The notes under the pieces: model-generated
The model's database searches: none
Seen by the model: only the letters and a program-made list of their open reading frames with translations
Told to the model about the DNA's origin: nothing
Source: an uncultured Prevotellaceae bacterium
Lineage (GTDB): Bacteria > Bacteroidota > Bacteroidia > Bacteroidales > Bacteroidaceae
Direction: 5' to 3'
Assembly (NCBI GenBank): GCA_900317635.1
Contig: ONHN01000001.1
Coordinates: forward strand, 62,001-126,000
Length of the DNA: 64,000 bases
Translations under genes and position numbers: made by a program
Shown: in pieces, positions 16,014 through 34,564 of the stretch
Layout of the letters: each line of letters begins with the position of its first letter
How positions within the stretch are numbered: position 1 is the stretch's first letter

Positions 16014-18107
16014 TTAGGGTTTCTGTTGCTTCTGCCCCACTTCACGCGCAAGCTGCTGGAGGGCGGCGCGGTCGGGCTTGCCCGTGGCGGTTTGCGGCAA
16101 GGATGCCACGGCGTAATAGCGGCGAGGCACGGCGTAGCGCGCGAGGCGTTGCCGGCAAAGGGCCTCGAGCGCGGGGCCATCGGCTGGCGAGCCGACGTAG
16201 AGCATCGTCAACGCTTCGCCCAGCCTACGGTCGGGCACAGCGGTGAGGTTGAAGGGGACACTCATGACGCGACCCAACACAGCTTCTATTTCCTCGATGT
16301 GCAGCTTAACGCCGCCGCTCACCACGACGTTGTCCACGCGCCCTAAGACGCGGAAACTTCCATCGGGCTGGAGCTCGCCCACGTCGTTGGTGACGATGAG
16401 GGGTTGAGGCAGCCGGGGCGATTGAATGCAAAGACATTGGCGCTCGTCCAACGTCACGCGCACCCCGCGTAAGGGTCGGTAGCAATCTTCGGCCTCGGGT
16501 CCGTTGAGGCGTCGAAGGGCTACGTGCGAGAGGGTCTCGGTCATGCCGTAGGTGCTGAAGACAGCGCCAGTATGCCGCTTGAGGGCTTGAACCAACGACT
16601 CGTTGACAGCTCCGCCACCAATGATGAGCCAACGCACACCGAACAGCAAGCGGCGTTCGCGCACGTGCTGCAGGGTTTCGAAGACTTGCATGGGGGTGAG
16701 AGCGGCAAACTCAGGAGCACAACGCAAGCCTTGCAAGGGGCGCGAGGAGGGAGCTACCAGCACGGGGCGCAACCGTCCGACGAAGCAGCGAACGGCCATC
16801 ATCATGCCTGCAACGTACTTCATAGGCAAACAGATAAGCGCCGAGGCTTGCTGCGGAATGCGCAACGTCGATAGCGTCATCTCCGCACTGCGACACATCG
16901 CGCTTTTATCGGTTTCCATCTTCTTTGGCACACCCGTCGAGCCGCTTGTTTGCAGCGTCATGGTGGGCTTCGTGGGATCGGTCCACGCTTGCTGGAAGGC
17001 GAAGAACTCCTGCCGGTGCGCCCGCTCTTTCTCATCGTAGAGCCAGAGCCGTCCGCGCTCAATGCGGGTAGCAGGTCCGTAGTTTTGCACGAAGAGTTGG
17101 CCCGTGCCTAAGCCTTGCGCCATCGGTTCGCCGCCCAAGCAAGCTTGCAGGCGTGCAATGGCGTTTAGGCCCACGTTGCTCTCGAGCGCACTCGTCATCC
17201 ACCACTTCACGCCCTCGGCGCGCGCAGCCTCTGTCCAGTCCTTGCTGCCTTTTACACCGCCGTGGAGCGAGGGTTTCAGTACGATGTATTGTGGACGCAC
17301 CGCCTGCAAAAGCTGTTGCATAGCGGCGGGATGGTTGATGCCGATGAGTTCCTCGTCGAGGACGATGGGCACAGGCGACAAGCGGCACAACTCGGCCAGC
17401 GCGTCAAGCTGACCGGCACGAATGGGCTGCTCGATGCTGTGAAGCTGAAAAGCAGCGAGTTGCTGCAATTTACGCAGTGCCTCGTCGGGCGCAAAAGCGC
17501 CGTTGGCATCAACGCGTATCTCAAGCTCTTTAGGCGTGAAGCGGCGGCGCAGTCGGCGCAGGAGGTCCAACTCATCGTCCCACGCTATAGCCCCTATCTT
17601 TATCTTGATGCAGCGAAAGCCGTCGGCCACCTTCTGCTCCATGCGCCGCAGCATCTCCTCGTGCGATCCCATCCAAACGAGGCCGTTGATGGGTATGCCT
17701 TCAAGGCCGCGCGCAAAGGGTGATGAAGGAAAGAGGTTGAAGCTATTGGCCGTTGTGAAGCTGGCGTGCAACGACTCGAGGGCCGTTTCAAGGCCGAAGC
17801 GTATGGAGGGGAAGGCGCTGATGTCGGCGGGGAAGCGTTTGGTTTGTTCGATGAAGTTGCAAATGCGGCGCAGACGCGCGACGTAATCGGCCGAGAAGTC
17901 GCAACTCAGGTCGGGCAACGGAGCGCACTCGCCTACGCCATAGGCCGTGCGGCCTTCGTGCTCGGCATAGGCCACGACGTACCAAACGGGGCGCACGGTA
18001 TAGACACCGCGTGACGTACCCGCAGGTTCCTTAAAGCGCAACGTGCGCGCCACAACGCGAAAGCGAAGATGTGAGAAAGGGTATATGGATTGAAGAAGAA
18101 ATTGCAT
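16014..18107 (-). CDS. menC-menE: Fused o-succinylbenzoate synthase and o-succinylbenzoate-CoA ligase (MenC-MenE)
   Basis: Translation from the ATG at 18107 (MQFLLQSIYPFSHLRFRVV) gives 697 residues. Residues about 1-345 are an enolase-superfamily MenC domain with GVGECAPLP, the catalytic KIKIG, DANGAF, EQP and the VLDEE and VLKPS segments. Residues about 370-690 are a short MenE-type AMP-forming ligase with TLQTSGSTGVPKKMETDKSA, STYGMTETLSHVA, VLGRVDNVVVSGGVKL and a C-terminal ATGKPDRAALQ lysine. Both catalyse consecutive steps of menaquinone synthesis. The domains are normally separate proteins, so one polypeptide carrying both is notable. No other men gene lies nearby. An in-frame extension to 18188 lacks a ribosome site. 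Confidence 0.88.
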   Translation of the reverse strand: MQFLLQSIYPFSHLRFRVVARTLRFKEPAGTSRGVYTVRPVWYVVAYAEHEGRTAYGVGECAPLPDLSCDFSADYVARLRRICNFIEQTKRFPADISAFPSIRFGLETALESLHASFTTANSFNLFPSSPFARGLEGIPINGLVWMGSHEEMLRRMEQKVADGFRCIKIKIGAIAWDDELDLLRRLRRRFTPKELEIRVDANGAFAPDEALRKLQQLAAFQLHSIEQPIRAGQLDALAELCRLSPVPIVLDEELIGINHPAAMQQLLQAVRPQYIVLKPSLHGGVKGSKDWTEAARAEGVKWWMTSALESNVGLNAIARLQACLGGEPMAQGLGTGQLFVQNYGPATRIERGRLWLYDEKERAHRQEFFAFQQAWTDPTKPTMTLQTSGSTGVPKKMETDKSAMCRSAEMTLSTLRIPQQASALICLPMKYVAGMMMAVRCFVGRLRPVLVAPSSRPLQGLRCAPEFAALTPMQVFETLQHVRERRLLFGVRWLIIGGGAVNESLVQALKRHTGAVFSTYGMTETLSHVALRRLNGPEAEDCYRPLRGVRVTLDERQCLCIQSPRLPQPLIVTNDVGELQPDGSFRVLGRVDNVVVSGGVKLHIEEIEAVLGRVMSVPFNLTAVPDRRLGEALTMLYVGSPADGPALEALCRQRLARYAVPRRYYAVASLPQTATGKPDRAALQQLAREVGQKQQKP

Positions 18108-18180
18108 AGGACGGATGTTTACAAATCGTAAAGCAAGAAGTGAGGGGCTGGCTAACGCCGTCGATGGGGGCAGGCGGGAC

Positions 18181-18265
18181 GACAGCATACCCAGTTATTT
18201 TGTAGGCGGGGTCACCCGCGCTCCCAGGGGGCCGCGTCGTTCCGTATGCTGTCATATTATGACAG
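18181..18265. repeat. Palindromic repeat cluster upstream of the men gene
   Basis: GACAGCATAC at 18181-18190 is inverted at 18244-18253 (GTATGCTGTC). Between them is a REP-like palindrome (GGCGGGGTCACCCGC followed by CTCCCAG). The second arm runs into a further palindrome, GCTGTCATATTATGACAGC at 18248-18266. The cluster lies between the men gene start and the beta-helix gene stop, so an operator role for the last palindrome is possible but unproven. Confidence 0.5.
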
Positions 18266-18298: not shown

Positions 18299-19789
18299 TC
18301 ACTCGCCTTTCGTGGGGCCGACGGTGCGGGCGGGCAGCGCGTCGTTGTCGGTGAACCATTGCGTCGTTCCGCCAGCGTAGTTGACGTGCGCCTGGTCGAG
18401 GCCCGTGTCGCCAGCGTGGTGTATCTCGCACGCCCGAAGCGTGACGTTGCAGCGATTGCCAAACAGCGTGCCTTGGTTTTGCGCGAAGCGGCAGTTGTCG
18501 AAGACTACACCCGTTGACGCATCGTCGATGCTGACGAGGTCGAACTGACGGCAGCGAACGAAGTCGCAGTTTTGGAAGCTGACGTTCTGCACGTGGACAA
18601 GTTCCATGATGCCGTAGGAGCAATCGCGAATGACGGTGCGCTCCAGTTGCAGGTTGCTCACCAAAGATGCCTCAACGCCGTAGGTGCCACAGCCGTAGAG
18701 GTCGCAGTTGGCGATGGTGATGTTCTCGCTGTCCTCGGCATAGACGACACCGCCTTGGCAATAGCCCTCGTCGGTATGTCCCAGCGTGAGGTTCTCGAGG
18801 CGGATATTGGTGCAGCCGTAGAAGCTAAGGACGTTGGCGTAGCGCGGCGAAACGATGATGTGACTGTCGCGACCGCCGCGAAGCGTGAGGTTGTGCATAT
18901 TGATGAGGTCGAGCTGCCGCCCGTCGAACTGGCTGCAGCTGACGATGAGTTGCTTCGACTGGGAACGCTCGTCGTAGTAGTCGTTGCGCCAGAGGCGGCC
19001 CTGTTGCGTGAAGAATGCCTCATCGTTGAGCAAGTTGGTAAGATAGAGCGTAGTGCCGTCGGCAATGCGAAGGGTGCGGTTGCTGCCAAGGGCTTCGAGG
19101 AACTCGCGCTCGTTGCTGACGGTAAGGAACAGTTCGTCAGCTTCAACACTGTTTGTTTCGTGATGCACAGCGCCTTCGTCCTCTACGGGTTCTTCAACAT
19201 CGGGCAGGCCGAAGCCTACGTCGATAGCAAAGTTGATGAGTTGCTGGTTGGTTTTCTCGATGAGCGTCTTGCGCTGTATGCTTCGCAGCTTGTTGGCCAT
19301 GCCCTGCAGGAGTTCGGGGTGCAACCCATAAAGGTAGTGCTGGTTCATCAGCCAGTTTGAGATGAGCGTCATGGGGTCGCCCTCTTCGTCCACGGCGGTT
19401 TGCTGCGCCGTGCAGTTGACGATGTTGTCGGGCGTGAGCACCATGGTTTCGCAGATAGCGTTATCGCTGTCGTAGAAGGCCAGGAAGTTCATGCCACCCT
19501 GCCTTATATATTGTACACGCGAGCCCCACGAGCAGCCCATCGGCGGTTCGCTCTCGCCCTTGACGAGAGTATATTCGGCTTGCTTCTTGGCCACTTTCTT
19601 AAGCGTGAGCTGTGCCGTATTGCCCGCAATGTCGGCACCGTTGAGAACCACGCTTCCAGCCTTCTTGTCGATGCTTGCCACATAGAGGGTCTCGCCATTC
19701 CAAAACTTATTGCCTTGCAAAATGGTTTGCGCTATAGCCACGGATACGCAGGTTAGGCTCATCAGAAGGAGAATTGCTACTTTTTTCAT
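18299..19789 (-). CDS. Secreted right-handed parallel beta-helix protein
   Basis: From the ATG at 19789 (MKKVAILLLMSLTCVSVAIA then Q) the protein has about 496 residues. The signal peptide is followed by an N-terminal domain of about 220 residues with LISNWLMNQHYLYGLHPELL, then a run of short parallel strands: LDLINMHNLTLRGG, NIRLENLTLGHTDEG, NITIANCDLYGCGTYG, NVSFQNCDFVRCRQ and similar. These are typical of beta-helix repeats found in polysaccharide-active enzymes. No catalytic motif of a defined lyase family is visible, so the activity is unknown. It has its own promoter at 19819. Confidence 0.75.
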   Translation of the reverse strand: MKKVAILLLMSLTCVSVAIAQTILQGNKFWNGETLYVASIDKKAGSVVLNGADIAGNTAQLTLKKVAKKQAEYTLVKGESEPPMGCSWGSRVQYIRQGGMNFLAFYDSDNAICETMVLTPDNIVNCTAQQTAVDEEGDPMTLISNWLMNQHYLYGLHPELLQGMANKLRSIQRKTLIEKTNQQLINFAIDVGFGLPDVEEPVEDEGAVHHETNSVEADELFLTVSNEREFLEALGSNRTLRIADGTTLYLTNLLNDEAFFTQQGRLWRNDYYDERSQSKQLIVSCSQFDGRQLDLINMHNLTLRGGRDSHIIVSPRYANVLSFYGCTNIRLENLTLGHTDEGYCQGGVVYAEDSENITIANCDLYGCGTYGVEASLVSNLQLERTVIRDCSYGIMELVHVQNVSFQNCDFVRCRQFDLVSIDDASTGVVFDNCRFAQNQGTLFGNRCNVTLRACEIHHAGDTGLDQAHVNYAGGTTQWFTDNDALPARTVGPTKGE

Positions 19790-19818
19790 AGTAAACAAAG
19801 CTTTTTAGGGGTTTGATG

Positions 19819-19861: not shown

Positions 19862-20268
19862 CTTTTTGAAGAATAGCTCGTCTCGTTGCCGTCGCCATCA
19901 TACGTATGGCTATGCGCCTGATTAACGGCTGGGATAACGAGCATCTGAGTAATCACTTCGGGGGGAGTCTTTTTATATAGATATGGCCTATATGGCAATC
20001 TATTGAATGCTCTTTCCTCTTCTTGCAACTCACATAATTTAACAAACCTACTAAAATATTCATAATCTTGATGGCCTATCTGATACAGTAATATTCGCAT
20101 TGAAGGAGTTATGCAAATGCCGTTTTTGTAGTGTTCCTCTAATGCTTCATAGGAGGAATTCTCTAATCTTCTTAGTGCTCGCTTATAATCTTTATGAATT
20201 GATCAATGATTACGAAGTGGAGTAAACTTAAGAGTAAGTTCGTAGTATCTTGTAAATATAGAATCAGC
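19862..20268 (-). pseudogene. Remnant of the RHS-array immunity-like protein, fused to RHS sequence
   Basis: Read from 20268 the frame gives ADSIFTRYYELTLKF, an internal TGA near 20204, then KDYKRALRRLENSSYEALEE and MRILLYQIGHQDYEYFSRFV. This matches the conserved end of the exported proteins at 22222 and 24196 (DSIF, KRRIRRAH, PPYIVLLYQI). Near 19940 it switches in frame into RHS sequence (QAHSHTYDGDGNETSYSS), which then breaks off. It is thus a chimera of an immunity gene 3' end and an RHS fragment, with a nonsense codon and no start. It is not expected to be functional. Confidence 0.75.
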
Positions 20269-20541
20269 CAATCATTTTGTCTTCTATAGCCTGATTGATA
20301 TCGCTTTCTTTTTTGTTTTCTATAAAAAGCAAAAACTTTTTATCTATCCCATCATCAATATGCCTAACTTTGTCGCCCCTCAAATTATAATAGTCCGATA
20401 GGCCTAACGGGTCTATTCTGTTGATAGGGTCGTTAGAGCTATAGACGTACGGACTCAAGGCATAGTACTTCTCTGCCAGCGGATCGGGCGAGATGAAGCG
20501 CGGGTAGGACATGCGCTGGAAGCGGGCGAGGGAGTCGTAAA
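20264..20541 (-). pseudogene. Orphan RHS tip of cassette 4, toxin domain deleted
   Basis: The segment encodes the conserved RHS end (YPRFISPDPLAEKYYALSPY, NDPINRIDPLGLSDYYNL) and the first 30 or so residues of the JAB-type linker (VRHIDDGIDKKFLLFIENKK). It then stops after AIEDKMIG at 20264. The next 200 bases are an immunity-gene remnant in another frame. Comparison with the copy at 25325-26206 indicates a deletion of the whole JAB domain and most of the immunity gene. It starts directly after the stop of the lipoprotein gene at 20545. Confidence 0.75.
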
Positions 20542-20544
20542 CGA

Positions 20545-20976
20545 TTATTTACTCTTACTAACCTCATTTATTTCTTTAATCTCTTTCACTACATACAATT
20601 GTTGCCAGTATCCCTTTAATACTACTTTATCTTTTTCGTTGGGTGATAGGTAGTAAATCTTTTTGTCAGCATCGGAAGGGGACGATATCAAATCTAAATG
20701 TATTTGGTATGTTTTTCCTTTCTTTATCTTGGTATCATTAGGGATTTGATTTTTGTAAAGTATTGCATACTCAGGGACACGAGGAATATTTTGTGGCTTG
20801 TGATATAATTTGAGTATATAATATGTATTCCGCTCTTTAATAGACCCTATGTTGTAGAGCTCAAAGTTTGTTGCGTCTGCATACTGAGAAGAGGCATCAA
20901 TATAACTCATTCTTATCTTACAAGAAGAAAAGAAGATGATTGATATGAATATTTTTATTATCGTTTTCGCCTTCAT
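20545..20976 (-). CDS. Predicted lipoprotein, candidate immunity protein (paralogue 2)
   Basis: The 143-residue protein has a lipoprotein-type signal (MKAKTIIKIFISIIFFSSC). It is a paralogue of the next gene upstream: both share a strand pattern ending in KIYYLS or KIYYFS, then LYV and EI (here DADKKIYYLSPNEKDKVVLK, there EAHRKIYYFSKGRPKGN). It is AT-rich, starts one base after the upstream stop, and follows the HEITEA-motif toxin gene. Position and size suggest an immunity role in the envelope. No known family is recognised. Confidence 0.6.
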   Translation of the reverse strand: MKAKTIIKIFISIIFFSSCKIRMSYIDASSQYADATNFELYNIGSIKERNTYYILKLYHKPQNIPRVPEYAILYKNQIPNDTKIKKGKTYQIHLDLISSPSDADKKIYYLSPNEKDKVVLKGYWQQLYVVKEIKEINEVSKSK

Positions 20977-20977
20977 T

Positions 20978-21418
20978 TTAATATAGCTGGATTATTTGAG
21001 TTCTTGCCTTAATTTCATTGATGGTATCTGCAACATACAATTCATTAAAGGGGCCATTTACAATGACAACATCTGGATTCCCTTTTGGCCTCCCCTTTGA
21101 AAAATAGTAAATTTTTCTATGAGCTTCACTTCTACATGAAATAAAGGGGTGGTCGATGATTTTGTATGTATGAGCTCTTTTTAATTTAACATTTCCTAAA
21201 TCACGCTTATAAATAAGAATGTAATTATATCTTGGGCGAGAAATTGATAACAAATCATATTTTCCTTTTATAACGAAAAAATCACTATGCTCTTCAATGT
21301 CTTTAATAACATAACGATTGAAATCAAAAAGCCTTGAATCATACCAATAATAATGTTGATTACAATTGTTTAGTGATATTAAGACTATTATACAAAACAA
21401 TACTTTAAAGAATTTCAT
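20978..21418 (-). CDS. Predicted lipoprotein, candidate immunity protein (paralogue 1)
   Basis: The 146-residue protein begins MKFFKVLFCIIVLISLNNC, a lipobox-like signal. Its body (YNYILIYKRDLGNVKLKRAH, FNELYVADTINEI) aligns by eye with its downstream neighbour. It begins 3 bases after the stop of the toxin-bearing gene at 21422, so the two are probably co-transcribed and coupled. Duplication of an immunity gene behind a toxin is common in polymorphic toxin loci. The function is inferred only from position. Confidence 0.6.
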   Translation of the reverse strand: MKFFKVLFCIIVLISLNNCNQHYYWYDSRLFDFNRYVIKDIEEHSDFFVIKGKYDLLSISRPRYNYILIYKRDLGNVKLKRAHTYKIIDHPFISCRSEAHRKIYYFSKGRPKGNPDVVIVNGPFNELYVADTINEIKARTQIIQLY

Positions 21419-21421
21419 AAT

Positions 21422-22240
21422 CTATCTTTTTATGGGTCTTTTAAGGAATGATCGATTATTACTAACGATGAAATAGTCAATGTAATCATCATATAATGCC
21501 CAACTTATAACCGTCTGTTTCGTAGCTTTCCTATGTGCCTGATTATAATCATCATTTGCTTTTTGTTCTTCTTTTAATATTGCTGGTGCTATATCTTCTC
21601 CTTTCTTTATCGCAATCATAGCCCCTTCATACGCTTCAGTTATTTCATGCATTAGGTTTTTACCTGGTTTATTGATGGCCATGTCCAGGTTATAAATAAA
21701 TTCAGGATCGATATATTGAATTGCAACGACCTCTTCTATCTCACCTTCACTATCTTTATAAACTTTATTTCCCATAAAAGCTCCTCCAATAAAATAGGCA
21801 TGCTCATTGATTACTCCTTCTCTTATCCCTTTAACATAAACTTTTACAAGGTGGTTGTTTATTATTTCAATAAGTTTTTTAGCTTCTTTTGATAACGTTG
21901 TATTGGGTAGCAATTTATATCCTATTCTCTCTGCTTCTTCTATCGTAATAGACAGCTGATTCTTAAATTTTTCCTGCAATAAGGCATAAGCTTTTTGAGC
22001 ATCGTCACCTGTTAGAATAAGATCGCGCCCCGTAGGATCAACAATGTTCACAAAGTCGTTCCCTGCATACGCATACGGACTCACACCATAGTACTTCTCC
22101 GCCAGCGGATTGGGCGAAGTGAAGCGTGGGTAGGACATGCGCTGGAAGCGGGCGAGGGAGTCGTAAACGTCCCAAGCGTTCAGCGTCATGGCTTCTTTGC
22201 CGCAGAACTCATTTTTGCAAATTAAAATACTTCTATCCAT
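21422..22240 (-). CDS. RHS tip with HEITEA-motif toxin domain (cassette 3)
   Basis: The first 75 residues are the RHS tip (FCGKEAMTLNAWDVYDSLAR, YPRFTSPNPLAEKYYGVSPY, ending NIVDPTGRD). The remaining 200 residues form an AT-rich C-terminal domain with NLMHEITEAYEGAMI and a later DDYNQAHRKATKQTVI. HE followed by E, plus a later His, recalls metallopeptidase-like RHS effectors whose ends read like HEVTEAYQGA...AHNxA. Catalysis is not proven because a canonical HExxH is absent. It lacks an RHS N-terminus and any export signal, and its first residues overlap the end of the immunity-like gene at 22222, as expected for a silent cassette. Confidence 0.65.
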   Translation of the reverse strand: MDRSILICKNEFCGKEAMTLNAWDVYDSLARFQRMSYPRFTSPNPLAEKYYGVSPYAYAGNDFVNIVDPTGRDLILTGDDAQKAYALLQEKFKNQLSITIEEAERIGYKLLPNTTLSKEAKKLIEIINNHLVKVYVKGIREGVINEHAYFIGGAFMGNKVYKDSEGEIEEVVAIQYIDPEFIYNLDMAINKPGKNLMHEITEAYEGAMIAIKKGEDIAPAILKEEQKANDDYNQAHRKATKQTVISWALYDDYIDYFIVSNNRSFLKRPIKR

Positions 22241-22902
22241 GATTTGGGTAATGTTGTATCTTCATCATGAATTGTTATACCAATATAACGCTTAAAGTAT
22301 TTAAATTCTTCAGGCTTAATTTGGTAGAGAAGTATTAGAAATGGAGGTTTATAGAGGACCGCATTCTTATATTTGTTTCGTATTTTCTCATATTTTGGCG
22401 GCTTAAGTATTCGTTTATGCGCAGATTTGATATATTTACGATATGACCTAAATGGCTCTTCCCCCATTCGCCAAAGGAATATAGAATCTGCTTGTGATTG
22501 GGAAATCTCTGTTAAGGAATCAATAGGATATTGTGACATATATTCCTTTATCATATCTCTATCAATTTCTACAACTTTATCCTCAATTTTTTCAAAATTT
22601 GATCCACAATAATCTTCATGTTGTTTAACATCAAGAAATGCACACACAAAAGAACCATTACCAAAGCCGAAACCAACATCTACATATCTATTACGTGACC
22701 ACCAATATTTTACAGTTAAAGGCATTGTAATATCAAATGCAGGGTTTACTACTCCTGATTTAACTATCGTTTCGTATGTTTCAGTGTCTATGTAATAAAT
22801 TGCATGGAACGAAAATGTTACATATGCGTTGACTTCTGCTTGACTCATTGCTTTAGCGGGTAGCCCCATAAGAATAATTGCAACGATAATTTTTTTTACC
22901 AT
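22222..22902 (-). CDS. Exported immunity-like protein of cassette 2 (one conserved domain)
   Basis: AGGAGG lies 5 bases upstream of the ATG at 22902, giving about 226 residues (MVKKIIVAIILMGLPAKAMS then Q, a Sec signal peptide). The C-terminal third carries the motif SQADSIFLW...YRKYIKSAHKRILKPPK and LYKPPFLILLYQIKPEEFKY, shared with the 375-residue protein at 24196 and the remnant at 20268. The gene begins a few bases after the stop of the JAB toxin gene. It is AT-rich. A role in protecting the producer in the periplasm is inferred from position, export and repeated association. Confidence 0.6.
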   Translation of the reverse strand: MVKKIIVAIILMGLPAKAMSQAEVNAYVTFSFHAIYYIDTETYETIVKSGVVNPAFDITMPLTVKYWWSRNRYVDVGFGFGNGSFVCAFLDVKQHEDYCGSNFEKIEDKVVEIDRDMIKEYMSQYPIDSLTEISQSQADSIFLWRMGEEPFRSYRKYIKSAHKRILKPPKYEKIRNKYKNAVLYKPPFLILLYQIKPEEFKYFKRYIGITIHDEDTTLPKSWIEVF

Positions 22903-22913
22903 CATTACCTCCT

Positions 22914-24146
22914 TCACTTTTCTTCAAACATTTTTTTTATTACATGAACTACTGACGAATATGATTTAGTGCTTACATGCTCTTTCTTGTTCCGGTAATT
23001 ATAGATTACAATAATCATTTCAGTTTCTCTTTCTCGTGTAAAACTAATACTATTGGATGTATTGTTAGGATTAACAACCCTGAATGCCAAAAGGAGATGC
23101 GAACGTTCCATTGACGATTTAAAATCATCAATTGAAGGAATAGATGAATCTGTTTTAAAATCATTATAAAACGGATGCGAATGCACATCATACATGTACG
23201 TATCTCCTAACTTTATTAAATCCTCAATGGCATTTTCTATCGCCTTTTTAGGAACGTTTTCTTCCAATCCTCCGTGAATATCAGAAATGCTTCCTTTTTC
23301 ACCTACGGCAAAATAATATTCCTTCTTATTCTCCTCGGTGCTATCGAACATTTTTTTCAACTTGGTCAAGATTTCGATCCCAGGAATGTAGATATACATC
23401 ATATCCTCTATAGCCTGGTTAACAACTTTCTCTCTTGAACTGTTGGTGAACAACAAATATTTTCTGTCTATCCCATCATCAATATGCCTAACATTCTTAC
23501 CATTCAAATTGTAATAGTCTGAAAGGCCTAACGGGTCTATTCTGTTGACGGGATCGTTAGAGCTATAGACGTACGGACTCACACCATAATACTTCTCCGC
23601 CAGTGGATCGGGCGAGGTGAAGCGCGGGTAGGACATGCGCTGGAAGCGGGCGAGGGAGTCGTAAACGTCCCAGGCGTTCTGCGTCAGAGCTTCTTTGCCG
23701 CAGAACTTGAAGGGCTGAAAGGCAGCGTGCATGCTACGCCATATCTTACCCGTGGGAAGGTATTCAAGGCTCTGAACGGTATCGCGACTCGTAGCATCAA
23801 TCACCAGTCGCACACTGCCAAGCTGGTCCTGAACGTAGGCGTAGGGACGAGCCCAAGCTGATTGCAGCGTGTCGTTCCACAACGAGTAGTAGCCGCCATC
23901 GGTATAGAGCCTGACAAGACGGCCATCGCGAAACACGAGGTCGCCATCGCGAACCTCCGTCGTGGTGTAGTGCGGATTGGACGACTGCGTACTGGCAGTG
24001 GCCATCATGGGCAGCAGCAATTGTGTCTGGCTGGTTTGCGTCTGCGTCAGCATGCGCCGACCGTCGGCCATGTATGCCATGCGGATTCGCCCTGCAAAGA
24101 TAATACTTTCAACGCTGTCGGGCAAGGAGAGCAGGTTATAATGCAC
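22914..24146 (-). CDS. RHS core fragment with C-terminal JAB-type toxin (cassette 2)
   Basis: Residues about 1-210 are RHS/YD sequence (RMAYMADGRRMLTQTQTSQT, WARPYAYVQDQLGSVRLVID, YPRFTSPDPLAEKYYGVSPY, NDPVNRIDPLGLSDYYNL). Residues about 215-410 hold a linker (VRHIDDGIDRKYLLF) and a JAB/MPN-like domain with YMYDVHSHPFYNDF and SSIPSIDDFKSS, matching the JAMM pattern HxHP...SxxD. Toxin-JAB1-type domains of this kind have been predicted in polymorphic toxins. The copy has no RHS N-terminus or signal peptide. Codon content shifts from GC-rich RHS to AT-rich toxin near 23520, a sign of a transferred toxin cassette. Confidence 0.8.
   Translation of the reverse strand: MHYNLLSLPDSVESIIFAGRIRMAYMADGRRMLTQTQTSQTQLLLPMMATASTQSSNPHYTTTEVRDGDLVFRDGRLVRLYTDGGYYSLWNDTLQSAWARPYAYVQDQLGSVRLVIDATSRDTVQSLEYLPTGKIWRSMHAAFQPFKFCGKEALTQNAWDVYDSLARFQRMSYPRFTSPDPLAEKYYGVSPYVYSSNDPVNRIDPLGLSDYYNLNGKNVRHIDDGIDRKYLLFTNSSREKVVNQAIEDMMYIYIPGIEILTKLKKMFDSTEENKKEYYFAVGEKGSISDIHGGLEENVPKKAIENAIEDLIKLGDTYMYDVHSHPFYNDFKTDSSIPSIDDFKSSMERSHLLLAFRVVNPNNTSNSISFTRERETEMIIVIYNYRNKKEHVSTKSYSSVVHVIKKMFEEK
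23463..24144 (-). repeat. RHS core direct repeat, copy B
   Basis: This stretch, from the HYNLLSLPDS codons to the HIDDGID codons, is nearly the same as 25855-26544, with scattered base differences. It is GC-rich compared with the flanking toxin and immunity genes. Shorter parts of the same repeat are at about 20391-20541 and 22076-22210. It is a natural substrate for homologous recombination between cassettes. Confidence 0.8.
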
Positions 24147-24195
24147 GGACGATTGATATGTTCATACTCTGTGAGCATCATCTTCTAATAATTTT

Positions 24196-25323
24196 TTATA
24201 GTGATATGGGTTGCCAAAATTTTGTATCGTCTATAAAGGACTGCAAATATTTCTCTTCTATTTGATATAACAAAACGATATATGGTGGTTTATACATGAT
24301 TGCATTATTCTTTTCTACATTATTATGCGCTCTTCGTATTCTTCTTTTTGCTTTATTATACAATCTGCTCAAATCCTTATTGCGCAATCCTTTCTCACTA
24401 TAGCATATAAAAATTGAATCAGCTAATGACTGTGATATCAGAGAAAAACAATCTTTTTGAAGACAATTTTTAGGTATAATTGTTTCTATTTGAGAAGCTG
24501 ATAAATAATCATGTATGTGCAATGTGTCTATCTTAAACATGCAGATATATTCTTTCTGATGATGCCTCTTAAACTTGTATTGCCATATCACACTCTCCTC
24601 ATCTTGTATCGTTTTTTGAACACCAAAGGGTAATTGTAGCAATAATGGTGCATCTGGCATATTATATTTATTTGTAGCACAATCTCCATGAATATATATA
24701 TGATTGAAATGAGCATCCCTATTTTGCTTCACTGCTCTATTACTCTCAGGCATAATATAGAATAGAGAGGCTATTTTCTTATATTGTGGGGATAAATGAT
24801 TATTGATGTTGTAAAGAAATATACAGAATGGAGCTTTATAATATATCGCATTCCCTATATCGGGAGAAGAGTATGGTATAGAATCAGAAGTCTGAGATAT
24901 AGCCTGCCTATAGAGTTCTTCAAGTACCAGGTTACGTTGTGCCATTCCTTTTACTAACATCAAAAATAATGAATCTGCAAAAGATGAAGATATATCACGA
25001 AAATCATTATTGTAATTACCTAATCTTATAATTTGATCCTCTACCGAATGGTCAGAACTTAGTGTGTCAACTATGAAAATACCAATAAACTCATTAGCAT
25101 CTTTAGCTGTAAAATAAACATCTGATCCATGCATAGACATGTCATAACCATATGCATCAAATGGCAACAGAACTTCGTATGCAGGATGAATTTGTTTTTT
25201 TTCACCATCCGATGACGCGTATCCTGCAGGTTGCTTCATTAATGTATAAAGCCCAGTATTTTGAGCTTTCATGGCTGCAAAAGATAGTAATACTGATACA
25301 ACCATGAATAGTCTCTTTTTCAT
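24196..25323 (-). CDS. Exported immunity-like protein of cassette 1 (two copies of the domain)
   Basis: The 375-residue protein has a Sec signal peptide (MKKRLFMVVSVLLSFAAMKA then Q). The conserved domain occurs twice: near residues 110-190 (SFADSLFL...IYYKAPFCIFLYNINN) and near residues 280-370 (SLADSIFI...KRRIRRAH...IMYKPPYIVLLYQIEEKY). The gene begins one base after the stop of the JAB toxin gene at 25325 and is AT-rich. The neighbour at 22222 has one domain copy behind a related JAB toxin. I recognise no named immunity family. Confidence 0.62.
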   Translation of the reverse strand: MKKRLFMVVSVLLSFAAMKAQNTGLYTLMKQPAGYASSDGEKKQIHPAYEVLLPFDAYGYDMSMHGSDVYFTAKDANEFIGIFIVDTLSSDHSVEDQIIRLGNYNNDFRDISSSFADSLFLMLVKGMAQRNLVLEELYRQAISQTSDSIPYSSPDIGNAIYYKAPFCIFLYNINNHLSPQYKKIASLFYIMPESNRAVKQNRDAHFNHIYIHGDCATNKYNMPDAPLLLQLPFGVQKTIQDEESVIWQYKFKRHHQKEYICMFKIDTLHIHDYLSASQIETIIPKNCLQKDCFSLISQSLADSIFICYSEKGLRNKDLSRLYNKAKRRIRRAHNNVEKNNAIMYKPPYIVLLYQIEEKYLQSFIDDTKFWQPISL

Positions 25324-25324
25324 G

Positions 25325-26206
25325 TTATAAAAGAATACTTGTTATTGCCTCAGAAAACTTTGAAAGAGGTATTGGTTTGCTCATATTAACTTTATTATAC
25401 AGCCTAATGTACAATTCTTTTCTAAATTCATATTGCTGTGGATAGGTATTAAAAATAGGCCTTTCTACTCTCTTGAAAGCAATAAGTATATTTGTTCTAT
25501 CTTCGCTATTATCGATGTCCGTTTTTGAAGGATTATATGTGTACAGATCTGTTTCTAAATGAATGGGATGCGAATGCACATCATACATGTACGTATCTCC
25601 AGCCTTCGTTAAATCTTTTATGGCCCTCGCCATGGTCGCTTTAGAAACGCTTTCTTCCAATCCATCGTAAATATTGGAAATACTCCCTCTTTCTCCTACG
25701 ACAAAAGCATACTCTTTCATATTCTTACTTGTCAGCTTAAACATATCCTTTATCTTCGTCAAGATTTCTATACCAGGAATATAGATAAACAATTTGTCTT
25801 CTATAGCCTGATTGATATCGTTTTCTTTTTTGTTTTCAATAAAAAGCAAAAACTTTTTATCTATCCCATCATCAATATGCCTAACTTTGTCACCCCTCAA
25901 ATTATAATAGTCCGATAGGCCTAACGGGTCTATTCTGTTGATAGGATCGTTAGAGCTATACGCATACGGACTCACACCATAGTACTTCTCTGCCAGCGGA
26001 TCGGGCGAGGTGAAGCGTGGGTAGGCCATGCGCTGGAAGCGGGCGAGGGAGTCGTAAACGTCCCAAGCGTTCTGCGTCAGAGCTTCTTTGCCGCAGAACT
26101 TATTGGGCTGAAAGGCGGCATGAGCGCTGCGCCATATCTTACCCGTGGGTAGGTATTCAAGACTCTGAACGGTATCGCGACTCGTAGCATCAATCACCAG
26201 TCGCAC
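25325..26206 (-). CDS. RHS tip with C-terminal JAB-type toxin (cassette 1)
   Basis: The open frame from 26206 covers the RHS tip (LVIDATSRDTVQSLEYLPTG, YPRFTSPDPLAEKYYGVSPY, NDPINRIDPLGLSDYYNL) and a JAB/MPN-like end. The metal-binding motif is YMYDVHSHPIHLETDLY followed by NPSKTDIDNS, again HxHP...SxxD. It would continue the RHS reading frame of 26246-27011 were it not for a TGA in place of TGG at 26245-26247. Linker segments (KVRHIDDGIDKKFLLF, DINQAIEDK) are the same as in cassette 4. The toxin-domain sequence is clearly diverged from cassette 2, so these are paralogous toxins rather than one duplication. Confidence 0.75.
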   Translation of the reverse strand: MRLVIDATSRDTVQSLEYLPTGKIWRSAHAAFQPNKFCGKEALTQNAWDVYDSLARFQRMAYPRFTSPDPLAEKYYGVSPYAYSSNDPINRIDPLGLSDYYNLRGDKVRHIDDGIDKKFLLFIENKKENDINQAIEDKLFIYIPGIEILTKIKDMFKLTSKNMKEYAFVVGERGSISNIYDGLEESVSKATMARAIKDLTKAGDTYMYDVHSHPIHLETDLYTYNPSKTDIDNSEDRTNILIAFKRVERPIFNTYPQQYEFRKELYIRLYNKVNMSKPIPLSKFSEAITSILL

Positions 26207-26544
26207 ACTGCCAAGCTGGTCCTGAACGTAGGCGTAGGGACGAACTCAAGCTGATTGCAGCGTGTCGTTCCACAATGAGTAGTAGCCGCCCTCGGTATAG
26301 AGCCTAACAAGACGACCATCGCGAAACACGAGGTCGCCATCGCGAACTTCAGTCGTTGTGTAGCGCGGATTGGATGACTGCGTACTGGCTGCAGTGGCCG
26401 TCATGGGCAGCAGCAATTGTGTCTGGCTGGTTTGCGTCTGCGTCAGCATGCGCCGACCATCGGCCATGTAAGCCATGCGTATTCGCCCTGCAAAGATACT
26501 ACTTTCTACGCTGTCGGGCAAGCTGAGCAGATTATAATGCACTG
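25855..26544 (-). repeat. RHS core direct repeat, copy A
   Basis: This is the counterpart of 23463-24144. The two copies keep the same reading frame through WARPYAYVQDQLGSVRLVID in copy B, whereas copy A has VRPYAYV preceded by a stop. The similarity ends at the toxin variable region on one side and near HYNLLS on the other, marking the cassette borders. Confidence 0.8.
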
Positions 26545-27011
26545 AGACGTTGCCCGAAGAATAGCTCGTCTCGTTGCCGTCGGCATCGTACGTATAGCTA
26601 TGCGTCTGATTAACGGATGATTTCTCTGGAGAGCGAACTGGGTTCGTAACCATAGGAGATACACGTTTCTGTAGCGACAGCGTTATCAAACTCTGACTCG
26701 GCGCAGAACGCGCCTTCGCTGTAGGCTATTTGAGGCAGATAATACGCCTGAAGACGACCTGCACCATCGTACCGACGAAGGTCGGGCAGTGCCGTGTGAG
26801 AGACACCGGCTTCGTGATGTATGGTCTGTACGGGGCGCAGGGCCGCATCATAGTACGTGGTCTGAGTAATTGAATTGCTGGCAGAAACGCCTGCGGGGGG
26901 TAGCGCACTCAATGGCCTCAGCGTGCGAACATAGTTCAACTGAGAATATATGCTTGAAGGGACAAGCAAACAAACAAGTAGAGGTAAGATATAGCGAATG
27001 GGACTCATCAT
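26246..27011 (-). pseudogene. RHS N-terminal segment, frameshifted and with a nonsense codon
   Basis: The frame from 27011 encodes a signal peptide (MSPIRYILPLLVCLLVPSSI and SQ) and RHS/YD-like sequence (TTYYDAALRPVQTIHHEAG) but ends at 26610. The RHS continues in another frame (NQTHSYTYDADGNETSYSSG, RLYTEGGYYSLWNDTLQSA) to a TGA at 26246, where cassette 2 has TGG. The N-terminus is only about 130 residues before the shared core, far shorter than the 1,000 or more residues usual for RHS proteins, implying a large internal deletion. It is the only RHS start in the array. Confidence 0.75.
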
Positions 27012-27163: not shown

Positions 27164-28804
<1,641 letters not shown>

Positions 28805-32356: not shown

Positions 32357-32525
32357 ACTTCATCGTTTTCTTTTGGAACACCTATGGCCCACTGTTGCGG
32401 CCCCACGCTTTAAGGGTGCAAAGGTATAACATCTTCTCCATTTATTAGCACCTTGAAGCAAAGAAAAGCAATAGGGCAAAAAAAAGAATACTGCTACATG
32501 TTATGCTTTATTGAAACTATTGCAT

Positions 32526-32533
32526 ACTTTTGC
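32526..32533 (+). promoter_or_regulatory. Candidate promoter of the BspA-like gene
   Basis: TACTTTTG matches TAnnTTTG. TATG lies 19 bases upstream at the -33 position. The gene starts 49 bases downstream. Confidence 0.5.
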
Positions 32534-32581
32534 CTAACAAACCACACGCCACTATCAACCCTTAACACCCAACCATTATCA

Positions 32582-34564
32582 ATGAAACACACCCTTCGCA
32601 AACATTTCAGCTTCCTCTTCACTGCCTGCTTCGCTCTGACAGCGATAAGCCAAACGACGAAGTTTGAGGTAGATGGTATTTACTATCAGACAACCTACAA
32701 CTCTTCGAGCAACGTTGAAGTAGTCGCTAACCCCAAGAGTGCCTACTCGGGCTATCTCACCATTCCCTCCACAGTCAGCCACGACGGTAAGCAGTATGAT
32801 GTTGTTGCTATCGGCAACCGCGCCATGGCTAACTGCACGGAGCTGAAGACGCTGGTTGTCGAAGAGGGTATCACCGCCGTGAACGACAGTGCGCTCTACC
32901 ACTGCACGGGGCTGCAACGCATCACGCTACCCACGACGCTAACGCGAATTGGTTACGTAGCGCTGAACGGCATCGGCGTGAAGAAGCTGCGCCTGCCAGC
33001 CTTTACGTCCTACTGCCTGCTTGAGACGCAAAGTATGGGCGACTGTCCCAACCTGACCGACCTCTACCTCGACGCGCCCAGCAGTAGGATTTTCACCTTC
33101 ACAAATGCCTACAATGCCCATCCTTTTATCGGCGGCAGTGGCGGCTTTGCCTATACGGCGGCAAAAGGCCACCCCGTCACGCTTCACCTCGTAGCCAACG
33201 CAACGGACTACGCAGACGAAATGCCATGGTCTTTGTTCGAAACCGTGAAATACGACAACCAGCCAGGCATCACCATTGTTGACACCGACCCGCTCACCTA
33301 CGAACTCACGTCAAACACCACCGCCTGTGTTGCCGCTTGTAATCCCAATGCCGAAGACGAAGTCTTCATTCCCGAAAGCGTAACGATTGAAGGCAAAAAC
33401 TACATCGTCACAAGCATAAAATCACGTGCATTAGCTAATGCTAAAATCAGTGATGCCGTTATGCCTAATACGCTTACCAATATAGGAGATTCTGCATTCT
33501 ACAATTGCGAGAACTTGCGTGATATCAATATCCCTAACTCCGTCACCGCAATTGGCTCCTACGCTTTTGCAGGCTGTGAAAAGGCAACGTCCCTCACGTT
33601 GGGCAATAGCGTGAAGAGCATTGGCCAGTATGCTTTCTATAACTGCCAGTACGTTGAAACGCTCCACATCCCCGCCTCAGTGATCAAGATTGGCGAAGCT
33701 GCTTTTGCATCCAACTACTACCTTTCAAGCATCACTGTTGACAAGGCCAACCCTGTCTATAGTTCGCCTAATGGCTGCAACGGCATCATCGAGACGGCCA
33801 CGAAGACGCTCATCGCGGCATGCTCCGACACTGAGCTTCCCAACGACCTGCTCCACATCGGCCCACGCGCCTATATGCAACTTTCTCTTGAAGAGCTCCA
33901 ACTCCCTGCCAGCGTACGCACCATTGGCGAATATGCTTTCTACGGAAGTAGCCTTCGTGGAATTGAACTTCCTGGGAACATAGAGCGCATAGGCAAGAGC
34001 GCGTTCGAGACAAGCTACCTCGTTGGCATCGACCTTCCTAACAAGGTGAAATTCATAGGCGAAAGAGCTTTCGCCAAGACGGTGCTTTTGTCCATCGTCT
34101 TCCCCAAGTCACTAACGGAAATCAGTGCTGGAGTGTGTGCCGACTGCTCCTACCTCATTGAAGCTAACATTCCCGCCACGGTGCGTAGCATCGGTGCTGG
34201 AGCTTTCGAGAACGTGCCGTTCCAGCAAGTATATGTCAACATTACCGATCCTTCGCAATGCCAAGCCCACGAAACATCCTTCAGCGGTTTGCCCAACGAC
34301 GCAACCCTCCACGTGCCAAGCGGAACAACCAACCTATACACGAACCTTGTGCCTTGGAGCTACTTTAAGCAAATTGTTGACGACGCACAGCCCTCAACCG
34401 AACCCGCCGACCTCAACGACGACGGCGACATCAACGTAGGCGACGTCACCACCCTCGTCAACGCCATCCTCGGCAAAAGTGGCGAAGGTGCCGACCTCAA
34501 CGACGACGGCAGCATCAACGTGGGCGACGTCACAACGCTCGTTAATATGATATTAGGAAAGTAA
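32582..34564 (+). CDS. BspA-type leucine-rich repeat surface protein with dockerin-like end
   Basis: From the ATG at 32582 (MKHTLRKHFSFLFTACFALT) the product has 660 residues. After the signal peptide come LRR_5-type repeats such as LTNIGDSAFYNCENLRDINI, VTAIGSYAFAGCEKATSLTL and VKSIGQYAFYNCQYVETLHI, the pattern of BspA and Treponema-like surface proteins. The last 60 residues contain two dockerin-type Ca-binding segments (LNDDGDINVGDVTTLVNAIL and LNDDGSINVGDVTTLVNMIL). No cohesin partner is visible in this window. It is probably exported and surface-bound. A terminator follows. Confidence 0.87.
   Translation: MKHTLRKHFSFLFTACFALTAISQTTKFEVDGIYYQTTYNSSSNVEVVANPKSAYSGYLTIPSTVSHDGKQYDVVAIGNRAMANCTELKTLVVEEGITAVNDSALYHCTGLQRITLPTTLTRIGYVALNGIGVKKLRLPAFTSYCLLETQSMGDCPNLTDLYLDAPSSRIFTFTNAYNAHPFIGGSGGFAYTAAKGHPVTLHLVANATDYADEMPWSLFETVKYDNQPGITIVDTDPLTYELTSNTTACVAACNPNAEDEVFIPESVTIEGKNYIVTSIKSRALANAKISDAVMPNTLTNIGDSAFYNCENLRDINIPNSVTAIGSYAFAGCEKATSLTLGNSVKSIGQYAFYNCQYVETLHIPASVIKIGEAAFASNYYLSSITVDKANPVYSSPNGCNGIIETATKTLIAACSDTELPNDLLHIGPRAYMQLSLEELQLPASVRTIGEYAFYGSSLRGIELPGNIERIGKSAFETSYLVGIDLPNKVKFIGERAFAKTVLLSIVFPKSLTEISAGVCADCSYLIEANIPATVRSIGAGAFENVPFQQVYVNITDPSQCQAHETSFSGLPNDATLHVPSGTTNLYTNLVPWSYFKQIVDDAQPSTEPADLNDDGDINVGDVTTLVNAILGKSGEGADLNDDGSINVGDVTTLVNMILGK

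What the first reader, a model, noticed from the sequence alone, without database searches (positions are those of the whole stretch)
19862..27011. Array of RHS C-terminal cassettes with JAB-type and HEITEA-motif toxins
Four cassettes lie head to tail on the minus strand. Each has a piece of RHS core or tip, a different or deleted C-terminal toxin domain, and downstream exported proteins. Two cassettes carry JAB/MPN-like domains with the motif HxHP...SxxD, one has HEITEA, one has lost its toxin. The GC-rich RHS parts are nearly the same between cassettes, while toxin and immunity parts are AT-rich and diverged. This is what recombination-driven toxin swapping would leave.
Basis: partly seen in the sequence, partly recalled or inferred. 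Interest (0 to 1): 0.85.

Follow-up and report, generated by a model that had tools for sequence, protein, structure and literature searches.

The report
Orphan Rhs toxin-immunity cassette array
A bacterium carries a row of spare toxin-and-antidote gene pairs, partly decayed, whose antidotes are all predicted to leave the cytoplasm; this suggests that the toxins attack a rival's cell envelope, and one of them belongs to a toxin family that standard family libraries do not describe.

Summary
In detail: four head-to-tail RHS tips on the minus strand, about 92-95% identical in DNA and 55-57% G+C, each ending at DPxG and followed by 33-34% G+C C-terminal domains; the three full cassettes continue into exported proteins. 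A fifth core scrap and an immunity remnant lie at the 3' end. It is an orphan rhs-CT/immunity array, a known kind. The head gene lacks about 535 residues of core and its frame, so no cassette here is joined to a working leader. The two JAB-like domains carry a JAMM-type motif but do not match Toxin-JAB1. The HEITEA domain is the most interesting part: its relatives, at 14 Bacteroidota loci, matched no Pfam-A model (6 scanned) and no PDB sequence. Ten aligned members share an HExxE...H set, and a confident AlphaFold model looks weakly zincin-like. The next gene is called exported or lipoprotein at 13 of 14 loci. In 57 scorable RHS tips picked from the order, 38 are followed by a soluble exported protein against 19 of 81 background genes. 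I infer that many Bacteroidales RHS toxins act in the envelope. No activity has been shown.

The parts
26610..27011 (-). Head: signal-peptide-like start plus DUF6443 leader of an RHS protein, truncated; the core (about residues 148-682 of the genome's intact Rhs) is missing and the frame is lost at the join
   Evidence: PF20041 E 1.1e-7; blastx to intact C17 Rhs residues 54-147, 40% identity
25919..26619 (-). RHS core/tip 1, ends at DPxG; carries an in-frame stop near 26245
   Evidence: TIGR03696 6.1e-11; maps to C17 Rhs 683-917; ORF breaks
25325..25918 (-). CT1, JAB-like C-terminal domain (E69, HxHP 115-118, PSxxD 130-134)
   Evidence: Prok-JAB E 0.005, below cutoff; motif shared with CT2 and L021
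24196..25323 (-). imm1, exported protein; two stretches resemble imm2; putative immunity
23526..24149 (-). RHS core/tip 2 (orphan)
   Evidence: TIGR03696 1.2e-10; 92.7% identical to core 1 over 627 nt
22914..23525 (-). CT2, JAB-like domain, 49% identical to CT1
22222..22917 (-). imm2, exported protein, putative immunity
22028..22213 (-). RHS core/tip 3 (orphan, short)
   Evidence: 94.6% to core 1 over 147 nt; TIGR03696 30.0 bits, just under the 32.5 cutoff
21422..22027 (-). CT3, HEITEA domain: predicted metallohydrolase toxin, HExxE...H
   Evidence: A8 invariants H127 E128 E131 H165; AF2 pLDDT 87.4
20978..21418 (-). lipoA, lipoprotein by lipobox (NNC), putative immunity
20545..20976 (-). lipoB, lipoprotein by lipobox (SSC), paralogue of lipoA, putative immunity
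20402..20541 (-). RHS core/tip 4 (orphan, shortest)
   Evidence: TIGR03696 3.3e-8; 93% to core 1
20264..20401 (-). CT4, JAB-type domain cut after about 45 residues
   Evidence: 96% to CT1 over 132 nt
20017..20271 (-). Remnant of an imm2-like gene, start lost, with a stop
   Evidence: blastx to imm2 E 1e-8, imm1 1e-4
19868..19931 (-). Fifth RHS core scrap
   Evidence: the repeat finder D5, 92%; C17 Rhs 676-694, E 0.003

Best explanation
This is an array of displaced (orphan) RHS C-terminal toxin/immunity cassettes behind a decayed head gene. Shown: cassette order, near-identical cores of different length, and break points at DPxG. Inferred: recombination in the core puts new tips on a main RHS gene and pushes old ones downstream; when the head was whole, the Sec-exported DUF6443-RHS protein would have presented the current tip to neighbours. 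The toxins are predicted metal-dependent hydrolases (two JAMM-type, one HExxE...H type) that act in the periplasm or envelope of the target. The main reason is that their immunity proteins carry signal peptides or lipoboxes and so would meet the toxin outside the cytoplasm. With the head gene broken, the array probably no longer arms the cell; the intact immunity genes may still protect it, and the tips could serve as a store for recombination.
For: Core identity and break points. Same plan in other genomes: L021 and L022, and closely spaced tips in G171 C61, G248 C54 and G304 C17. CT3 relatives sit behind an in-frame RHS tip at 11 of 14 loci, and an exported or lipoprotein ORF follows at 13 of 14 by script. 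Toxin-JAB1 domains over the family cutoff: the next ORF is exported or lipoprotein in 22 of the 24 that have one, 27 loci examined. General sample: 38 of 57 tips against 19 of 81 background genes, Fisher p 5.7e-7. Domains with a Pfam name on the exported side are Toxin-JAB1, Tae4, M91, MPTase3 and Ntox23; on the other side Ntox17 and Lipase_3. Orphan arrays and their recombination are established (PMC3150448, PMC3967940: abstracts and passages).
Against: No activity or pairing was tested. The export caller is home-made, not SignalP, and flags 26 of 81 ordinary genes, 7 of them with later membrane spans. The 60 tips are high-scoring matches picked by me, not a random draw; four genomes give two each. 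For the 14 CT3-family loci I picked the start codons by eye, and at L158 and L163 the gene is not directly adjacent. The motif-to-export link is not significant (12 of 45 against 0 of 12, p 0.053). A lipase-type domain sits on the non-exported side. Exported immunity could also act by blocking uptake. A MAG contig (85% complete) may misassemble repeats, and the breaks may be assembly errors.
Confidence: 0.75

Rival explanations
1. A plain graveyard: the array is decaying DNA left by past recombination, with no present role for toxins or immunity.
For: Head gene broken twice, CT4 cut, fifth core and immunity remnant are scraps; promoter-like sites no more frequent than chance (26 found, 26.2 expected).
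Against: CT1, CT2, CT3 and all four immunity-type genes are open over their whole length, while the head is not.
Confidence: 0.35
2. The exported proteins are immunity, but the toxins are cytoplasmic nucleases, as proposed for toxin JABs in 2012, and the immunity blocks entry at the cell surface.
For: Zhang et al. proposed nuclease activity for toxin JABs and uptake-blocking for some immunity families with two membrane helices (PMC3482391, passages).
Against: Different toxin types share the pattern, including a Tae4-type cell-wall amidase domain; the best structural matches of CT3 include zinc hydrolases, though weak and not a test against nucleases.
Confidence: 0.15
3. Assembly artefact: a repeat-collapsed or chimeric MAG contig joins pieces of one or several RHS loci.
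For: 62 contigs, 85% complete; repeated cores of over 90% identity are hard to assemble.
Against: Contig C23 is 183 kb; junctions differ in place; the same plan occurs in other assemblies.
Confidence: 0.1

Closest known systems
Orphan rhs-CT/rhsI and cdiA-CT/cdiI arrays (PMC3150448, PMC3967940)
   Same: Fragments of a main gene with the conserved junction motif (DPxGL in Rhs, VENN in CDI), different C-terminal toxins, each followed by a small immunity gene; different lengths of retained core; high core identity (95% over 522 bp in Salmonella)
   Different: RHS with DUF6443 leader; head gene decayed; exported or lipoprotein partners
Tox-JAB-1 / Imm65 (PF15659; Zhang et al. 2012, PMC3482391)
   Same: Bacteroidetes RHS C-terminal JAB domain with a signal-peptide and lipobox immunity; a true PF15659 match is on contig C17 of this genome (E 2.4e-10)
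   Different: The window's CT1/CT2 do not match PF15659; only the stretch around HSHP aligns (hhalign probability 23), and the spacing from the second His to Ser is longer
Zincin-type metallopeptidase toxins (Tox-MPTase1-5 with HExxH, PMC3482391; Peptidase_M91)
   Same: RHS C-terminal domains with a His-Glu motif
   Different: The CT3 family has HExxE plus a later His instead of HExxH, and the six members scanned match no Pfam model
E. coli YbeY (1xm5) and AQ_1354 (1oz9, a YbeY relative by recall)

Membership tests
Orphan rhs-CT/immunity array | Several C-terminal fragments with shared core and DPxG junction, head to tail | tested here: met
Orphan rhs-CT/immunity array | Each fragment followed at once by a small putative immunity gene | tested here: met
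   By position only: three of three full cassettes; cassette 4 has a remnant
Orphan rhs-CT/immunity array | Downstream gene neutralises its toxin | not testable with these tools
   needs a bench test
Orphan rhs-CT/immunity array | Lies behind a main full-length RHS gene (usual, not required) | tested here: not met
   The leader is present but the head gene lacks its core and frame; an intact Rhs is elsewhere, C17
Toxin-JAB1 (PF15659) | Match to the family model over its cutoff | tested here: not met
   CT1/CT2 not listed at E <= 0.01 in G000, where only C17 matches, nor at E <= 1
JAMM/MPN (JAB) domain | Glu ... H[ST]HP ... SxxD set (recalled) | tested here: met
   E69, H115, H117, S131, D134 in all three sequences aligned; the spacing is longer than in Toxin-JAB1
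JAMM/MPN (JAB) domain | JAB fold or model match over cutoff | tested here: inconclusive
   Prok-JAB E 0.005 for CT1 only, below cutoff; AF2 of A2 failed, pLDDT 35.9
Zincin metallopeptidase | HExxH active-site helix | tested here: not met
   HExxE in all 10 aligned
Zincin metallopeptidase | Zincin fold | tested here: inconclusive

The most novel reading that the evidence does not exclude
Bacteroidota RHS systems are largely an envelope-attack arsenal: toxins that hydrolyse periplasmic or cell-wall targets, each with an exported or lipoprotein antidote. The CT3 (HEITEA) family is an undescribed member, a metallohydrolase with an HExxE...H metal set in place of HExxH...E, paired in Bacteroidales, Flavobacteriales and Chitinophagales with a diverging lipoprotein immunity. 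This would overturn the proposal that JAB-type toxins are nucleases.
Probability: 0.4. Interest if true: 0.68.

Novelty: new member of a known kind. Interest (0 to 1): 0.5.

Why it matters
The array is an ordinary example of Rhs toxin swapping. Its parts bear on an open question: what JAB-type polymorphic toxins cut. They were proposed as nucleases in 2012, while Imm65, the partner listed for Tox-JAB-1, was noted as an exceptional lipoprotein (PMC3482391, passages). Here exported partners are common among RHS toxins of this order (38 of 57 in a picked sample), which makes a periplasmic target directly testable. Fifty of 57 sampled C-terminal domains match no Pfam family over its cutoff, so much of this arsenal is uncharted.

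Tried and rejected
AF2 of the JAB domains with two sequences failed (pLDDT 35.9), so no fold claim is made for them. Profile comparison of window JABs with 19 Toxin-JAB1 domains aligned only 23 columns around HSHP (probability 23; the HEITEA profile as a control gave 0.3). CT2 gave a below-cutoff Pfam match to Malt_amylase_C (E 0.0008), taken as chance. PADLOC found nothing at E <= 0.1. The PDB sequence search found nothing for CT3 and one chance row at E 0.98 for the JABs. Viral contigs gave no relatives of imm1, CT2 or CT3; genome contigs gave none for the JAB pair. Relatives of imm1/imm2 were not found in 392 other genomes of the order; a relative of the JAB pair was found in 1 of 392. The weak hits L003 and L004 lie in proteins that look unrelated. 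The comparison of the ABC-F flank in congeners gave no empty site.

Homology of all HEITEA-family immunities is not shown: phmmer found only lipoA-lipoB. An HMM of six named relatives reached L148 (2.2e-11), but lipoB only at 0.0028 and lipoA at 0.21 in a set of 66, where a protein from an unrelated cassette (L144) scored 0.0091, so the link to the window's lipoproteins is weak.

Delivery: T9SS tail domains are present in the genome (3 over cutoff); the T6SS sheath model PF05943 is not found, but the genome is incomplete and that model rang only in E. coli among the controls. Neither settles the route. Foldseek against BFVD had no match at E <= 0.001. In VIA, families not listed are not excluded. 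Papers: the listings, and a motif-word search (10 papers, by title none on this topic) showed no paper on the HEITEA family that I recognised; most subscription papers and preprints are not held. PMC7073777 (TANFOR toxins of Bacteroidetes, passages) is a different leader. The Fisher value for '14 of 14' printed was hard-coded before the script gave 13 of 14, so it is not used.

Full report
What is there. I take its order to be Bacteroidales because genome G171, given as same order, holds the contig whose public title reads 'Bacteroidales bacterium UBA6680'. Between an ABC-F-type gene (27182-28804, +; named by eye) and an exported-protein gene (18299-19798, -), the minus strand carries, in reading order: a leader with DUF6443 (PF20041 E 1.1e-7); RHS tip 1 with C-terminal domain CT1 and imm1; tip 2 with CT2 and imm2; tip 3 with CT3 (HEITEA) and two lipoproteins; tip 4 with a cut CT4; an immunity remnant; and a last core scrap. 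Tips 1, 2 and 4 reach the TIGR03696 cutoff and tip 3 falls just below it (30.0 against 32.5 bits).

Break points. Cores are 91.7-94.6% identical in DNA over 96-627 nt. Mapped on the genome's intact Rhs of 1121 residues (contig C17, 36-52% identity), they begin at about residues 683, 714, 857 and 870 and all end at 917, at the DPxG junction. Beyond it, CT1 and CT4 are 96% identical over 132 nt, CT1 and CT2 74.5% over 353 nt, and CT3 does not align; the immunity genes do not align in DNA. G+C falls from 0.55-0.57 to 0.33-0.34 at the same point. The leader maps to residues 54-147 and core 1 begins near 683, so about 535 residues are missing; the frame is lost at the join and there is one more stop in the tip. 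No cassette here is therefore joined to a working leader. The genome has other RHS matches, among them the intact Rhs on C17 and a tip on C49.

Interpretation of the array. This is the organisation described for orphan cdiA-CT and rhs-CT modules, where tested orphan toxins and immunities were functional (PMC3150448, abstract and passages), and where recombination through 522 bp of 95% identity armed a main rhs gene with an orphan toxin (PMC3967940, abstract and passages). Similar arrays occur elsewhere in the order: 139 of 247 genomes have an RHS tip at E <= 1e-5, and for example contigs G171 C61, G304 C17 and G248 C54 carry tips 1.6-2.0 kb apart. The array is thus not new in kind.

The JAB-like domains. 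CT1 and CT2 are 49% identical. A relative in G267 (74 bits; 1 of 392 other genomes of the order) shares E69, D113, H115, H117, P118, P130, S131 and D134, a JAMM-type set (recalled), and is followed by a gene that the script calls exported (L021). Prok-JAB matches CT1 below its cutoff (E 0.005) and not the other two. They are not Toxin-JAB1 by model, while the C17 Rhs is (E 2.4e-10). Toxin-JAB1 was found in 28 of 295 genomes at E <= 0.01, in 25 over the cutoff. Of 27 loci over the cutoff that were fetched, 24 have a next ORF and 22 of these are called exported or lipoprotein. Zhang et al. paired Tox-JAB-1 with Imm65, called it the only immunity protein in their collection that appears to be a lipoprotein, and proposed nuclease activity for toxin JABs (PMC3482391, passages).

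Export of the partners. Script calls (home-made: basic residue, hydrophobic stretch, lipobox) on the genes after CT3-family domains, with starts picked by eye, gave exported or lipoprotein at 13 of 14 loci; L157 failed for want of a basic residue although it has a hydrophobic start and a Cys. At L158 the gene starts 122 bases on, and at L163 it follows the rest of a broken toxin frame. For a wider sample I fetched 60 tips from the listed matches, mostly one per genome and high-scoring. One toxin frame ran off and two had no next ORF. Of 57, 45 are called exported or lipoprotein, 7 of these with later membrane spans, leaving 38; 12 are not exported. Background genes (window outside the locus and ten congener stretches): 19 of 81 exported without later spans, 7 more with them; Fisher p 5.7e-7. 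On window genes alone the first control was 13 of 39, p 0.0018. Pfam names only 7 of 57 C-terminal domains over cutoff. On the exported side these are Toxin-JAB1, M91, Ntox23, MPTase3 and Tae4; on the other side Ntox17 and Lipase_3. Metal-enzyme motifs occur in 12 of 45 against 0 of 12 (p 0.053), which is suggestive only.

Mechanism. Most likely the toxins act outside the cytoplasm of the target, so that self-protection must also be exported. That the immunity proteins sit in the periplasm or on the outer membrane, that CT3 hydrolyses a peptide bond, and how the RHS protein reaches the target are all inferred. T9SS tail domains occur in this genome and the T6SS sheath model is not found, in an incomplete assembly. 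For this array itself, decay of the head suggests a reservoir or a graveyard that may still give immunity.

Verdict. What seems new is a toxin family, seen across Bacteroidota, without a Pfam-A or PDB sequence match, and numbers for exported partners in this order.

Noticed in passing
L021, L022; contigs G171 C61 (L141), G304 C17 (L142), G248 C54 (L154): Other genomes of the order carry rows of short RHS tip plus C-terminal domain ORFs. In L021 and L022 exported-looking genes follow; of the other three contigs I looked at the next gene of one tip each, in L141 (membrane), L142 (not exported) and, for G248 C54, L105 (membrane).
   Followed up: partly
L140/L155 (G000 C49): A further RHS tip of the same genome carries a Lipase_3 domain (2.2e-6) whose next ORF is short, 190 bases away and not exported.
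   Followed up: no
L144: An RHS tip with a Tae4-type amidase domain (2.6e-16), followed by an exported ORF: a cell-wall enzyme of T6SS type on an RHS protein.
   Followed up: no
L090, L136, L021:4791-5669, L022:1347-2318: A second recurring C-terminal domain type with a motif like [EH]E...[GSA]HA.[FLY][FY], also followed by exported-looking genes; no Pfam match for L090 and L136.
   Followed up: no
L147 (G310): A compact frame of 337 residues runs from a signal-peptide-like start through a short stretch and one RHS tip to a HEITEA-family domain, without RHS repeats.
   Followed up: no
window 25325-25918 and 22914-23525: CT1 and CT2 align in DNA (74.5%) over the first 353 nt and not after that point.
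   Followed up: partly
window 16014-18188: One open frame of 724 aa seems to join an enolase-type (MenC-like) and an acyl-ligase (MenE-like) part; read by eye only.
   Followed up: no
window 32453-34564: Leucine-rich (BspA-like) exported protein that ends in two dockerin-like repeats; read by eye only.
   Followed up: no
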